Both the position numbers and the translations under genes were made by a program. The notes beneath the pieces are model-generated. The model saw only the letters and a program-made list of their open reading frames with translations, made no database searches and was not told where the DNA came from. From positions 2,108,001-2,172,000 of the forward strand of contig NZ_CP012373.2 of assembly GCF_001305575.3 (NCBI RefSeq): a DNA stretch of 64,000 nt. The letters are read 5' to 3'. Positions 4,797 through 8,060 of this stretch are shown in pieces. Within the stretch, counting starts at the first letter, position 1; the number at the start of each line of letters is the position of its first letter. The stretch comes from Beggiatoa leptomitoformis (GTDB lineage: Bacteria > Pseudomonadota > Gammaproteobacteria > Beggiatoales > Beggiatoaceae).

Positions 4797-6119
4797 CTAT
4801 TTACTGCAAAAAGATTGCTGCAAACGACAATCCACGCTCCGCTCCTGACAATCACGCATTGCACGTTCTTCCGCTTCCAATTGCGTGTTATTCCATGCCC
4901 AACCGAAAATCGTCGCATCAGACGCTTTAGCTAACGCAATACAAGCATTATTTATCATGGATAATACCTGACAATCTTTCTTTGCCGTTAGGCTATTACA
5001 ACGATTGTTTGCTTCCTGCTCGGCTTCTGCTTGAGAACTTTTTTGACTGGATAACCCGTGCATACCACTAGTCGTTGAATAAGCTAACGCACCATACGCA
5101 TTAGGTTTTATTTCACTCTCTGTTGGTGAAACGGGTTCAGCAACAGGCTCGGCAGGTACTTCTTCTTCCGCATTGACTGAAGGCGTACCCATCTCCGTCG
5201 GTAAATCAATCCCATCAGTGGGTAAACGTACATCTACAACGTGCCAATTAATCACATCAACCCGCGCAAACACAACTGTAATTGCTTTACCCTCCACCTC
5301 TGTCGTTACTAAAAATGACGATATCCCATCGTAACTTAATTTAATTTTTTCCATTGAAGAATTAAGTGATTGCGCTTCTTTTTCAGGCACTTTTTCTGCC
5401 AACAATTTCTCCACCGTTTCAGGAACAATAAATTGATCAATTAAAGGTTCAAGCAACGGTTTTGCCATCGCAAAGGAAGTAGCCGCTTGCGCTGCCTCCC
5501 TAGGTGATGCACCACTATTCACGGGCGTTCCCTTAATCTCTTTATCAATTAAAGCAGATAACTGTGATTTTAGATTAAGTCGCAATGTCGGAAAATCAAC
5601 ATAGCTATTCAAGGTTGCCGCATCCCGCGCACTGTATGCTTTTTTCATATTCCACACAGTTAAATAAGGCGTGGCAAAAAATGCACCCGCCACAAGAATG
5701 ACTAACAGGATGATACTGATAAAAACAACAGACCCTTTTTTACGTGGACTTTCTTCTGCGGTATTAAAAATATCCTCGCTGGTTGTTGCAGGCACTTTTT
5801 TTACAACCGCTCGTGATGATGGAATTTTTTTCGGGGTAGGGTTTTTTGGTGGTATTGCATCTGGTGTAACAACCGTATTAGGGGCAGTAATTGCCCGCAC
5901 ATAACAAATTGCACCCGCTTTATGAAAAGCTGTTTGATAACGTTTTGCGGTTACTTCATCCGCCTCTTTAAGCACCGTTATGGGTTTACCAGAAAAGAGT
6001 AATTCAATTTTTTCGGGTGATTGCTTGGTTATTTGCGCAAGCTGTATTTTTACCTGTTCTATGGTTTTTTCTTGCTGAATTTCACCACGAAAAACAACCT
6101 TATAGCGGGTTTCGGTCAT
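4797..6119 (-). CDS. Membrane protein with DUF2939 and C-terminal DUF4189 domains
   Basis: 440 residues. Residues 1-75 form a small alpha/beta domain (YKVVFRGEI...LFSGKP...YQTAFHKAGA) that I have seen at the N-terminus of gammaproteobacterial membrane proteins. A Pro/Lys-rich linker follows, then one membrane helix (VVFISIILLVILVAGAFFA, about 130-150). Next comes a DUF2939-like region (AYSARDAATLNSYVDFPTLR). An acidic Pro-rich linker leads to a DUF4189 domain (about 340-440) with six cysteines and the GALAYS...GWAWN...A...C pattern. The last two domains should be periplasmic and disulfide-bonded. Function is unknown. It may be a small-ligand or envelope-stress sensor, but that is only a guess. 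Confidence 0.75.
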   Translation of the reverse strand: MTETRYKVVFRGEIQQEKTIEQVKIQLAQITKQSPEKIELLFSGKPITVLKEADEVTAKRYQTAFHKAGAICYVRAITAPNTVVTPDAIPPKNPTPKKIPSSRAVVKKVPATTSEDIFNTAEESPRKKGSVVFISIILLVILVAGAFFATPYLTVWNMKKAYSARDAATLNSYVDFPTLRLNLKSQLSALIDKEIKGTPVNSGASPREAAQAATSFAMAKPLLEPLIDQFIVPETVEKLLAEKVPEKEAQSLNSSMEKIKLSYDGISSFLVTTEVEGKAITVVFARVDVINWHVVDVRLPTDGIDLPTEMGTPSVNAEEEVPAEPVAEPVSPTESEIKPNAYGALAYSTTSGMHGLSSQKSSQAEAEQEANNRCNSLTAKKDCQVLSMINNACIALAKASDATIFGWAWNNTQLEAEERAMRDCQERSVDCRLQQSFCSK

Positions 6120-6494
6120 GGGGCTATATCTCTACATCAATGGATTAACAGCGGTTCTTAATTATCTAGGAGATAAGCAGACAACTCAAGATTTCATCTA
6201 GTTTAGCAATGACATTTTGTACTTAAATTTTAAAACGCGAACACGCTTAAAATACGTTTTTTCGTTTAGGCGTTTGAAACCGATTTTATATTTAACATCT
6301 TCTCATCCCTTATTTTTATACCATCTATCGTTAAGACTGAATACATAGATTGTTTCAATACCCAATTTTCTGCATAATGGTCAGTGGGCAAAGGCTTATT
6401 TTATTATTCAGCTGCTTGGGTTCTGTATGCCCATCTGGCGCACTGTGTCTGCAAATTGACATGATGCGTACCGATAATAAAGTTCCTTTATCCC
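6120..6494. other. Gene-free stretch upstream of the tRNA-like pair
   Basis: No credible reading frame on either strand. A TTGACA hexamer occurs near 6456, but I see no well-spaced -10 box with it. A TGGGCA...TGCCCA inverted repeat lies at about 6388-6432. I searched by eye for a sigma-54 (-24/-12) promoter ahead of the tRNA-like RNAs and found none with correct spacing. Confidence 0.5.
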
Positions 6495-6569
6495 GTCCAA
6501 TTAACTCAGTGGTAGAGTTTTAATTACTTGTTAATTAGGTCGCAGGTTCGACTCCTGCATTGGACACCA
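6495..6569 (+). tRNA. tRNA-like RNA with intact acceptor and T arms but an aberrant anticodon arm
   Basis: 75 bases. The acceptor stem is perfect (GTCCAAT with ATTGGAC), followed by A and an encoded CCA. The D arm is ACTC-AGTGGTA-GAGT and the T arm is perfect (GCAGG-TTCGACT-CCTGC). The only good 5-bp anticodon stem (TAATT/AATTA) leaves the loop ACTTGTT, which has C instead of the universal U at position 33 and reads TTG. Shifting the register to give a normal-looking TTGTTAA loop (Asn, GTT) destroys the stem. It is therefore either a tRNA mimic or a decayed tRNA. It lies four bases before a second tRNA-like sequence and 343 bases before the slipin gene. Confidence 0.6.
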
Positions 6570-6573
6570 CCTA

Positions 6574-6646
6574 TGCTAGGTAGCTCATTTGGTAGAGCAG
6601 TTGACTTTTACTCAACCTGTAGTAGGTTCGATTCCTACCCTAAAAT
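6574..6646 (+). tRNA. tRNA-Lys(TTT)-like RNA with broken acceptor stem and no CCA
   Basis: The D arm (GCTC-ATTTGGTA-GAGC), anticodon arm (GTTGA-CTTTTAC-TCAAC, anticodon TTT) and T arm (GTAGG-TTCGATT-CCTAC) are all perfectly paired, so the L-shaped core should fold. The acceptor stem TGCTAGG/CCTAAAA has two mismatches next to its open end, and no CCA follows (TTCGG instead). A functional tRNA-Lys would need a better acceptor. The combination of a good core and bad acceptor fits a tRNA mimic or pseudogene. It sits directly behind the tRNA-like element at 6495. Confidence 0.6.
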
Positions 6647-6911
6647 TCGGCAGTACCCGTGACTGTTCCCGTTATGAGTTAAATGGCTGGTTTAGCAGAT
6701 AACGCATAACAGCCTGCACAGGTTTTGTGTGTTGGGCAAGATAGGATGTGCCGTTGTTCTTCCTCAATATTATGTAATGCTGTGGCGGTGCTTTTATCAC
6801 CTTAGCAGACAGGCAATAATATTGTCGTTGTGCAATCGCCCCCCTGCACCAGCACCCACATTGTGCGGTGGAACAGCCACATTATTATTTTCAGTCAAAC
6901 GGGGATAAGTC
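6647..6911 (+). ncRNA. Hairpin-rich leader between the tRNA-like pair and the slipin gene
   Basis: 265 bases without a reading frame but dense in hairpins. One is a GTTATG-A-GTTA stem with TAAC-G-CATAAC (6671-6710). Others are a GGTG/CACC hairpin (6787-6801), a GGCAAT/ATTGTC hairpin near 6812-6826, and a two-part CACC-A-GCAC/GTGC-GGTG hairpin (6847-6870). A GGGG purine tract then precedes the slipin start. It may be a non-coding RNA that continues from the tRNA-like elements, or the structured 5' leader of the slipin mRNA. No known riboswitch class is recognised. Confidence 0.4.
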
Positions 6912-8060
6912 ATGATGGTGTTATGGCGTAAATTTGTTGTACGCAAAAATGAACGCGGTTTGTTATTCAAAGACGGCGATTTTCAAGGGTTTTTAGAGGC
7001 AGGTACTTATACTTATTTTGACCCTACAAAGAAAATCACGGTAGAGGTTTTTAACCTTGCTAAACCTGAATTTGACCATCCGATGCTCGATTTTCTGCTT
7101 ACCAAATATGCGGATGCCATGCAACAATATTGCATGAAGGTAGAGCTAAATAATCAACAAGTTGCGCTGATTCGGAAAAATGGCGTTGTAACTGATATTT
7201 TATTTCCCACCACTCGCCAACTGTATTGGAAAGGCTTAATTACCGTTGAAGCTGATATCATTGATATTAGTGAGAACTATGAAATTCCGCATGAAAAGGC
7301 GACAATGTTAATTTACGCGAAAAATGCGCCGTTAGCTTCCCGTCTAAGTACCGCAATTTATAGTCCTATTGTTCCTGAATATCATGTTGGTATTTTAACG
7401 GTTGACGGAAAGCGGTTAAAACTTTTGGATGTAGGGCTTTACGCCTATTGGACATTTAACCGTCGCATTGCTGTTGATATTGTGGACACCCGTCAGCAAG
7501 AAACTGAAATTGCAGGACAAGAAATTCTGACTAAAGATAAAGTAACCTTGCGTATTAATTTATCCGCTAGTTACCAAATTACGGATTATTTAAAACTGAG
7601 TTTAGCATTGGCTAAACCAATTGATTTTATTTATAAAGAATTGCAGTTTGGTTTACGTGCGGCGGTAGGCACACGCACCCTTGATGAACTGTTAGAAAAC
7701 AAAACCATGATTGATGACCAAGTATTCGCGCATATTCAGGCAAAAACGACGGATTTAGGCATTGTTGTGCATAGTGTTGGCGTTAAAGATATTATTCTCC
7801 CCGGTGAAATGAAAACCATTTTGAGTAAAGTTGTTGAAGCAGAAAAAGTTGCACAGGCAAATTTAATTCGCCGTCGTGAAGAAACTGCGGCTACCCGCTC
7901 ATTACTCAATACAGCGAAAGTGATGGAAGACAATCCAACCGCATTACGTTTAAAAGAGTTGGAAACCTTGGAAAAAGTCACGGAAAAAGTGGGCAGTATT
8001 TCTGTTTATGGCGGATTAGAAGGCTTGTTGAAAGAGTTGGTTAAAATTCGCGCTAGCTAG
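6912..8060 (+). CDS. Slipin (SPFH/band-7 family) protein
   Basis: 382 residues. The N-terminal 120 residues (WRKFVVRKNERGLLFKDG, then a beta-rich segment) precede a band-7/SPFH domain (about 150-330, with LLDVGLYAYWTFNRRI, DKVTLRINLSASYQI and LGIVVHSVGVKDIILP). The last part is an alpha-helical EA-rich tail (RREETAATRSLLNTAKVMEDNP). There is no obvious membrane helix, unlike classical stomatins. SPFH proteins form ring or cage-like oligomers. This subgroup is, from my knowledge of annotated genomes, often found beside RtcB RNA ligase genes and tRNA-like RNAs. Here tRNA-like sequences are directly upstream but no rtcB or rtcR lies in the window. It is probably transcribed with the structured leader. 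Confidence 0.85.
   Translation: MMVLWRKFVVRKNERGLLFKDGDFQGFLEAGTYTYFDPTKKITVEVFNLAKPEFDHPMLDFLLTKYADAMQQYCMKVELNNQQVALIRKNGVVTDILFPTTRQLYWKGLITVEADIIDISENYEIPHEKATMLIYAKNAPLASRLSTAIYSPIVPEYHVGILTVDGKRLKLLDVGLYAYWTFNRRIAVDIVDTRQQETEIAGQEILTKDKVTLRINLSASYQITDYLKLSLALAKPIDFIYKELQFGLRAAVGTRTLDELLENKTMIDDQVFAHIQAKTTDLGIVVHSVGVKDIILPGEMKTILSKVVEAEKVAQANLIRRREETAATRSLLNTAKVMEDNPTALRLKELETLEKVTEKVGSISVYGGLEGLLKELVKIRAS

What the first reader, a model, noticed from the sequence alone, without database searches (positions are those of the whole stretch)
6495..8060. Two tRNA-like RNAs directly upstream of a slipin gene
Seen: a tRNA shape with perfect acceptor and T arms and CCA but a defective anticodon loop, then a tRNA-Lys-like core with a broken acceptor, then hairpins and a soluble SPFH/slipin gene. 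Known (from memory): slipins of this type sit in RNA-repair (RtcB/RtcR) loci, and bacterial Y RNAs and related RNAs mimic tRNAs. Inference: these are not translation tRNAs but decoys or sensors for tRNA damage acting with slipin. No rtcB, rtcR or TROVE gene is in the window, so it may be a minimal or split variant.
Basis: partly seen in the sequence, partly recalled or inferred. Interest (0 to 1): 0.78.

Follow-up and report, generated by a model that had tools for sequence, protein, structure and literature searches.

The report
tRNA-mimicking RNA beside a slipin gene
Just upstream of a slipin gene lies a long structured RNA containing two tRNA look-alikes that do not look able to decode; the same RNA-plus-slipin pair recurs in many bacteria beside RNA-repair genes, so it is a free-standing version of a little-studied but already reported RNA-repair module.

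Summary
TL1 (6495-6569) has a perfect acceptor, T arm and CCA but a 5-nt anticodon loop; TL2 (6573-6648) has tRNA-Lys-like arms but a broken acceptor. Both lie in a ~480-nt structured RNA (about 6402-6883) just before slipin (6912-8060). A model of its covarying 5' domain matches upstream of slipin in 75 of 80 related loci, 47 of 52 not used to build it. Normal anticodon loops: TL1 5 of 54, TL2 17 of 54, nearby array tRNAs 27 of 34. rtcB lies on 61 of 80 stretches, divergent rtcR on 34; 33 of those 34 have a strong sigma-54 site before the RNA, 0 of 43 others. Here RNA plus slipin stand alone: no RtcR or TROVE, rtcB about 2 Mb away. A relative has a copy without slipin, another three tandem copies. 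Most likely it is the RNA partner of a soluble SPFH protein in tRNA-damage repair. A 2026 preprint credits this concept to Burroughs and Aravind 2016, so it is a new variant, not a new kind. Function is untested.

The parts
6350..6378 (+). weak sigma-70-like promoter (TTGTTT, 17 nt, CATAAT); tentative
   Evidence: Read; the stretch TTTTCTGCATA is shared with the 84% relative. It is not among the sites listed by the scan. No sigma-54 site of 10 or more of 12 positions at -800..-250.
6402..6476 (+). 5' domain of the RNA: hairpin 6417-6420/6430-6433 and long helix about 6435-6473
   Evidence: Covariance model R1 54.8 bits, next hit in the genome 17.8 bits (the window is in the training set); covariation score 0.562 against 0.232+-0.017 shuffled
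6495..6569 (+). tRNA-like 1 (TL1): acceptor 6495-6501/6559-6565, T arm 6542-6558, CCA 6567-6569, anticodon arm 6521-6537 with 5-nt loop 6527-6531
6573..6648 (+). tRNA-like 2 (TL2): tRNA-Lys-like D, anticodon and T arms, broken acceptor, no CCA
   Evidence: aligned in 32 sequences with 11 of 17 predicted pairs changed on both sides in at least one
6649..6883 (+). 3' domain of the RNA, closed by 6659-6669 pairing with 6870-6880
   Evidence: Thiotrichaceae alignment and fold; stretch 6402-6888 folds with z = -2.23, 3 of 100 shuffles as good
6912..8060 (+). SPFH/Band-7 protein (slipin), 382 aa, no membrane segment seen by eye: N-terminal beta modules, SPFH domain, long C-terminal helix
   Evidence: Pfam Band_7 6.1e-32; model pLDDT 81.4, pTM 0.57; fold matches

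Best explanation
Window 6402-6883 most likely encodes a long non-coding RNA that works with the slipin encoded directly downstream as an RNA-protein module of the bacterial tRNA-damage response. The RNA presents a tRNA elbow and acceptor end (T arms, TL1 acceptor with CCA, TL2 D/T elbow) while its decoding loop is free to change or vanish, so it can be bound by tRNA-handling proteins without being a translating tRNA or, probably, an anticodon-nuclease target. Inferred mechanism: the SPFH protein forms a ring or cage, the RNA is its bound cofactor, and its tRNA-like part recruits or positions cut tRNAs and repair enzymes such as RtcB. In 34 of 80 relatives' stretches the RNA sits next to a divergent rtcR, and in 33 of these behind a likely sigma-54 promoter, so there it would be made when cut tRNAs appear. 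In Thiotrichaceae it has left that setting and must be controlled another way. Shown: sequence anatomy, conservation, covariation, gene context, predicted sigma-54 sites. Inferred: transcription here, binding to slipin, cage formation, recruitment.
For: 5' domain in 75 of 80 slipin loci, all on the slipin strand and upstream, with compensatory changes. Loss of normal anticodon loops: TL1 5 of 54, TL2 17 of 54, against array tRNAs 27 of 34 and own tRNAs 18 of 19. The apparent anticodons differ in the congener while the frame stays. Lys, Asn and Ser tRNAs exist elsewhere in the genome. RtcR divergent on 34 of 80 stretches, RtcB on 61 of 80; sigma-54 site in 33 of 34 RtcR loci, 0 of 43 others, shuffles on average 0.86 of 34. 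A copy without slipin (L139) and three tandem copies (L132/L039) point to an RNA used in trans. In the family, 10 of 42 genomes have the 5' domain and all 10 are among the 17 with a slipin orthologue, p = 1.3e-5 without correction for kinship. Damaged tRNAs activate RtcR in Salmonella (PMC7790460, passages). [quoted passage not shown]
Against: No expression, binding or phenotype data. Six Pseudomonas loci (L079, L091, L092, L096, L100, L110) keep the 5' domain and sigma-54 site but show no T-arm motif, so tRNA likeness is not indispensable. 17 of 54 TL2 keep a normal-looking anticodon loop, the window's included. Seven of the 17 family genomes with a slipin orthologue have no detected 5' domain; in two of these slipin lies at a contig edge. 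The RNA was found almost only directly upstream of slipin, which also fits a cis-acting leader. G034 has RNA and slipin but no RtcB found. RtcR was seen in fewer than half of the stretches.
Confidence: 0.6

Rival explanations
1. It is a cis-acting leader: the tRNA-like parts are cut or bound by tRNA-processing or tRNA-cutting enzymes and the outcome sets slipin translation or mRNA stability, a built-in damage sensor.
For: The RNA lies on the slipin strand upstream of slipin in all 75 matched loci; in the window the 3' closing stem ends about 30 nt before the slipin ATG and no terminator-like site was found between them.
Against: A full copy lies without slipin in G019 (L139) and one genome has three tandem copies before one slipin. 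The distance from the second T arm to slipin varies from 222 to 466 nt.
Confidence: 0.25
2. Decaying tRNA pseudogenes left from a tRNA array next to the operon.
For: Runs of 3 to 18 tRNA genes lie upstream in 20 of 73 loci (after setting aside L039, whose extra 'tRNAs' are its own tandem copies), so raw material is at hand.
Against: Compensatory changes in TL2 and in the 5' domain, a D-arm pattern in 54 of 54 TL2, and presence where there is no array. The two T arms are 60-80 nt apart in 54 loci, but pairs were chosen with a 60-85 nt rule, so this is weak evidence.
Confidence: 0.04
3. TL1 and TL2 are odd but working decoding tRNAs.
For: Both pass the Rfam tRNA cut-off; TL2 has a 7-nt loop reading UUU.
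Against: Lys(UUU) and Lys(CUU), Asn and four Ser anticodons are covered elsewhere in the genome; TL2 has a broken acceptor and no CCA; TL1 has a 5-nt loop; neither apparent anticodon is kept in the congener.
Confidence: 0.04
4. It is a Y RNA of the YrlA type.
For: Sub-threshold YrlA match, 26.5 bits, E 0.0024, in the window; 31.7 bits in L078.
Against: Ordinary tandem tRNAs score 22.4-27.0 bits the same way and the cut-off is 69; L063 has a YrlA at 81.1 bits downstream of this RNA and slipin in the same gene cluster.
Confidence: 0.02

Closest known systems
SPFH/Band-7 (MVP-homologue) protein with operon ncRNA in RtcB RNA-repair loci (Burroughs and Aravind 2016; paper not held, abstract recalled as naming 'a novel tRNA-like molecule'; cited in a like sense by PMC13404743, passages)
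   Same: SPFH protein with a tRNA-like RNA beside it; RtcB on 61, RtcR on 34 and the RlaP-type nucleotidyltransferase on 20 of 80 relatives' stretches; RtcA confirmed in L063
   Different: In this genome the pair is free-standing: no RtcR, no strong sigma-54 site, rtcB about 2 Mb away. The RNA is resolved here into a 5' domain, two tandem tRNA-likes and a 3' domain; at Rfam cut-offs nothing but tRNA matched this region in the window or in the 11 loci scanned.
YrlA/YrlB Y RNAs with Rsr/Ro60 in rsr-yrlBA-rtcBA operons
   Same: Non-coding RNA with tRNA-like parts in RtcR-controlled repair operons
   Different: Different partner and no score above tandem-tRNA level in the window; L063 holds both RNAs
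Eukaryotic vault (MVP, TEP1, vault RNA)
   Same: SPFH protein with beta modules before the SPFH domain and a helix after it; 5 of 10 listed MVP entries align from residue 5-7 to 338-346, Z 10.8-11.9; L063 also has a TROVE/vWA protein
   Different: Far smaller; the other MVP entries align only from about residue 141-150 on; the N-terminal part alone matches the first subdomain of other SPFH proteins at Z 5-6, a level the tool calls common, and no MVP row was listed; no cage shown
Anabaena TrcR regulon (PMC10272220, passages)
   Same: A 26-tRNA operon (abstract start) and rtcB under one repressor relieved by translation stress; a slipin gene stands in the same table of changed genes
   Different: Cyanobacterial, different regulator; no such RNA examined here

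Membership tests
SPFH/Band-7 + tRNA-like ncRNA module of RNA-repair loci | SPFH/Band-7 protein next to a tRNA-like RNA | tested here: met
SPFH/Band-7 + tRNA-like ncRNA module of RNA-repair loci | orthologues sit with RtcB/RtcR | tested here: met
   RtcB on 61 of 80 stretches, RtcR on 34 of 80
SPFH/Band-7 + tRNA-like ncRNA module of RNA-repair loci | ligase or RtcR in the same locus in this genome | tested here: not met
   rtcB at C1:130531-131643, window starts at 2108001; no RtcR match
SPFH/Band-7 + tRNA-like ncRNA module of RNA-repair loci | RNA identical to the molecule described in 2016 | not testable with these tools
   paper not held
Decoding tRNA | 7-nt anticodon loop with U33 and purine 37 | tested here: not met
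   TL1 fails; TL2 of the window passes but TL2 fails in 37 of 54 loci
Decoding tRNA | intact acceptor with CCA | tested here: inconclusive
   TL1 passes, TL2 fails
YrlA Y RNA (RF02553) | score at or above 69 bits | tested here: not met
   26.5 bits in the window; ordinary tandem tRNAs 22.4-27.0 bits
YrlA Y RNA (RF02553) | Ro60/TROVE partner in the genome | tested here: not met
   no TROVE match
Vault / major vault protein | MVP repeats before the SPFH shoulder and a cap helix | tested here: inconclusive
   5 of 10 listed MVP entries align over nearly the whole model, Z 10.8-11.9; N-terminus alone matches SPFH1 of other SPFH proteins, Z 5-6; no vault family among Pfam matches up to E = 1
Vault / major vault protein | closed cage holding RNA | not testable with these tools
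   needs cryo-EM

The most novel reading that the evidence does not exclude
A bacterial mini-vault: a soluble, MVP-like SPFH protein assembles into a cage around a ~480-nt RNA that mimics tRNA without a working decoding loop, so that cut tRNAs and repair enzymes are gathered there. TROVE protein, Y RNAs and spare tRNA arrays are optional add-ons, and in Thiotrichaceae the RNA-slipin core has become an independent module outside RtcR control. This would link the unexplained vault particle to tRNA repair.
Probability: 0.2. Interest if true: 0.85.

Novelty: new variant of a known kind. Interest (0 to 1): 0.56.

Why it matters
Bacterial slipins of RNA-repair loci and the eukaryotic vault are both SPFH proteins with RNA partners and no settled function. 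A defined, widely conserved candidate RNA partner with a testable tRNA mimicry, present in a form free of the rest of the operon, gives a small system in which to ask what such an RNA-protein pair does. In the genomes scanned here Rfam sees only its tRNA-like parts and ARAGORN reports them as odd tRNA genes, so it is liable to be mislabelled.

Tried and rejected
YrlA membership: not accepted after the tandem-tRNA control; one pair, in L078, scores 31.7 bits, a little above the controls. Pseudogene and decoding-tRNA readings: rejected on covariation, anticodon-loop counts and the genome's own tRNA set. MVP repeats in the N-terminus: the separate model gave no Foldseek match at E <= 0.001 and no MVP row was listed, which does not exclude MVP. 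PADLOC: no hit up to E 0.1. Phage relatives of slipin: none at 1e-5 in that collection. Promoter scan: 7 found, 5.7 expected, so not informative. mascRNA-like sub-threshold hits on TL1 of L104 and L095 (26.9 and 23.3 bits, cut-off 42.5) are taken as chance or convergence. Literature: in the listings I saw no held paper that describes this RNA's sequence or structure; some lists were capped (25 of 59, 20 of 1,294, 10 of 17) and only openly licensed PMC papers are searched.

Limits of counts. The 80 loci are the best 80 of 265 matches; many are close relatives. The structure tested was derived from the same alignment; of its five measures, 'pairs with a change on both sides' (11) was reached by 8 of 500 shuffles, the other four by 0 of 500. 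TL counts use 54 sequences (53 of the 80 loci, plus the window) where two T-arm motifs 60-85 nt apart were found; 27 loci were left out, three of them with under 350 nt upstream. The D-arm pattern is permissive and misses the window's own TL1; the own-genome and array controls (19 and 34) are only those tRNAs that fit the same T-arm and D-arm patterns. RtcR, RtcB and nucleotidyltransferase calls are tblastn hits on stretches of differing length. The sigma-54 scan covered only -800..-250 of slipin, 34 RtcR loci and 43 others with more than 600 nt upstream, the window included; promoters further upstream of tRNA arrays would be missed; its control was single-base shuffling. The genome's tRNA search scored 150 of 288 candidates. 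The anticodon table comes from overlapping stretches, so its copy numbers are inflated.

Full report
What is there. ARAGORN and Rfam both find two tRNA-like elements at 6495-6569 and 6573-6648. TL1 has a 7-bp acceptor, a perfect T arm and an encoded A-CCA, but its anticodon arm is TAATTA-CTTGT-TAATTA: a longer stem with a 5-nt loop. TL2 has tRNA-Lys-like D, anticodon and T arms; its acceptor is mispaired and it has no CCA. Its best match among the genome's other tRNA stretches is the one holding tRNA-Lys(CUU), 81% over 58 nt. Slipin follows at 6912-8060.

The elements are part of a larger RNA. A protein search with slipin brought in 80 loci, mostly Thiotrichaceae, Betaproteobacteria and Pseudomonas, the best 80 of 265. 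53 of the 80 carry two T-arm motifs 60-85 nt apart before slipin; 68 of 76 carry at least one at -650..-200. Upstream lies a conserved hairpin plus long helix. In an alignment of 29 sequences, 11 of 16 predicted pairs have changes on both sides, and the covariation score is 0.562 against 0.232+-0.017 for shuffles (0 of 500 reach it) and at most 0.163 for slid versions; the structure came from the same alignment. A model of this 5' domain matches 75 of 80 loci at E <= 0.1, on the slipin strand and upstream of slipin each time; 47 of the 52 loci not used for training match. Of the five misses, L033, L038 and L046 hold under 350 nt upstream and L072 under 400. In the window it scores 54.8 bits; the next place in this genome scores 17.8 bits, E 3.75. 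In Thiotrichaceae a long 3' domain follows, closed in the window by 6659-6669 with 6870-6880; corresponding stems in relatives use different base pairs (by eye). The whole RNA is thus about 6402-6883.

The tRNA-like parts are not ordinary tRNAs. By one automatic rule (4 or more pairs, 7-nt loop, U33, purine 37) TL1 passes in 5 of 54 and TL2 in 17 of 54 sequences, against 27 of 34 tRNAs further upstream in the same loci and 18 of 19 of the genome's own that fit the same patterns. CCA is encoded at the tRNA position in 20 of 54 TL1 and 1 of 54 TL2; a permissive D-arm pattern is present in 54 of 54 TL2. TL2 pairs covary (11 of 17 changed on both sides). In the congener G005 the acceptor and CCA of TL1 and the anticodon stem of TL2 are unchanged, while ARAGORN's apparent anticodons become Pro and Gly in place of Ser and Lys. 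The genome has Lys(UUU), Lys(CUU), Asn and four Ser anticodons elsewhere.

Context. rtcR lies divergent to slipin on 34 of 80 stretches, rtcB on 61 of 80. A strong sigma-54 site (10 or more of 12 consensus positions) at -800..-250 precedes the RNA in 33 of 34 RtcR loci, in 0 of 43 others, and on average in 0.86 of 34 shuffled loci. L063 (Albitalea terrae) shows the full set: rtcR, this RNA, slipin, a TROVE/Ro60-vWA protein, a sub-threshold YrlB-like match, YrlA (81.1 bits), RtcB, RlaP, RtcA. None of the nine Thiotrichaceae stretches among the 80, some of them short, has RtcB. In the window's family, 10 of 42 genomes have the 5' domain, all among the 17 with a slipin orthologue (E < 1e-90), p = 1.3e-5 without correction for kinship. 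None of those 10 has an RtcR match; 9 of 10 have RtcB. G019 has a second copy of the RNA without slipin on the 3 kb stretch (L139), its only close slipin being on another contig, and G034 has three tandem copies.

The protein. The model (pLDDT 81.4, pTM 0.57) has two N-terminal beta modules, an SPFH domain and a long helix; I saw no membrane segment in the sequence (by eye). The best fold matches are stomatin, HflK and prohibitin, mostly over 136-346. Ten major vault protein entries are listed; five align from residue 5-7 on (Z 10.8-11.9), five only from about 141-150 on. The N-terminus modelled alone resembles the first SPFH subdomain of other SPFH proteins (Z 5-6, a level that may be a common arrangement), with no MVP row listed. 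The vault likeness is therefore suggestive only.

Reading. The simplest account is an RNA partner for the slipin within the tRNA-damage response. RtcR is activated by cut tRNAs in Salmonella (PMC7790460, passages). [quoted passage not shown] I recall that paper's abstract naming SPFH/Band-7 modules with 'a novel tRNA-like molecule', but it is not held. PMC13086221 (one passage) notes a P. aeruginosa SPFH protein inside the rtc locus. PMC13100048 (passages) calls MVP domains unique to the vault. So the kind is known; the free-standing Thiotrichaceae form and the RNA's anatomy are what this work adds, as far as the held literature shows.

Against the reading: no transcript or binding data; six Pseudomonas loci keep the 5' domain without T-arm motifs; a cis-leader role is not excluded; the YrlA likeness did not rise above its control in the window; the whole RNA folds only moderately better than shuffles (z -2.23).

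Noticed in passing
L041, L044, L047, L049, L053, L054, L055, L063, L102 and others, upstream of slipin: Runs of 3 to 18 tRNA genes lie more than 700 nt upstream of slipin in 20 of 73 loci (21 counted; L039 set aside because its extra 'tRNAs' are its own tandem copies). 16 of these 20 have rtcB on the stretch and 1 (L063) has rtcR. It looks like a repair-or-replace cluster and recalls the Anabaena 26-tRNA operon regulated together with rtcB.
   Followed up: partly
L139 (G019:C85:119730-119803): A full copy of the RNA (5' domain, tRNA-like, 3' domain) with no slipin beside it.
   Followed up: partly
L132 / L039 2421-3581: Three tandem copies of the whole RNA unit, about 545 nt apart, before one slipin gene.
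   Followed up: partly
L079, L091, L092, L096, L100, L110: Pseudomonas loci with the 5' domain and sigma-54 site but no T-arm motif: the tRNA likeness has been lost, changed or never gained.
   Followed up: no
L063 7152-12387: TROVE/Ro60-vWA protein, YrlA (with sub-threshold YrlB-like and second YrlA-like matches), RtcB, RlaP and RtcA follow the RNA-slipin pair in one gene cluster: two different ncRNAs with two different scaffold proteins.
   Followed up: partly
L061 3198-3638 (-), L078 2115-2466 (-): In two Acidovorax loci the RNase P RNA gene lies beside rtcR; not seen in the Delftia locus L073, which was scanned too.
   Followed up: no
L048, L055, L056, L060, L071, L074, L104 and others at about -640 of slipin: A recurring reading frame upstream of the RNA (peptide like DRTPEEAGMPL, translated by eye) may be an HNH-type gene; not scanned.
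   Followed up: no
window 4797-6119 (-): Protein with DUF2939 and DUF4189 domains (and a sub-cut-off ubiquitin-like match at residues 13-47) next to the RNA on the other strand.
   Followed up: no
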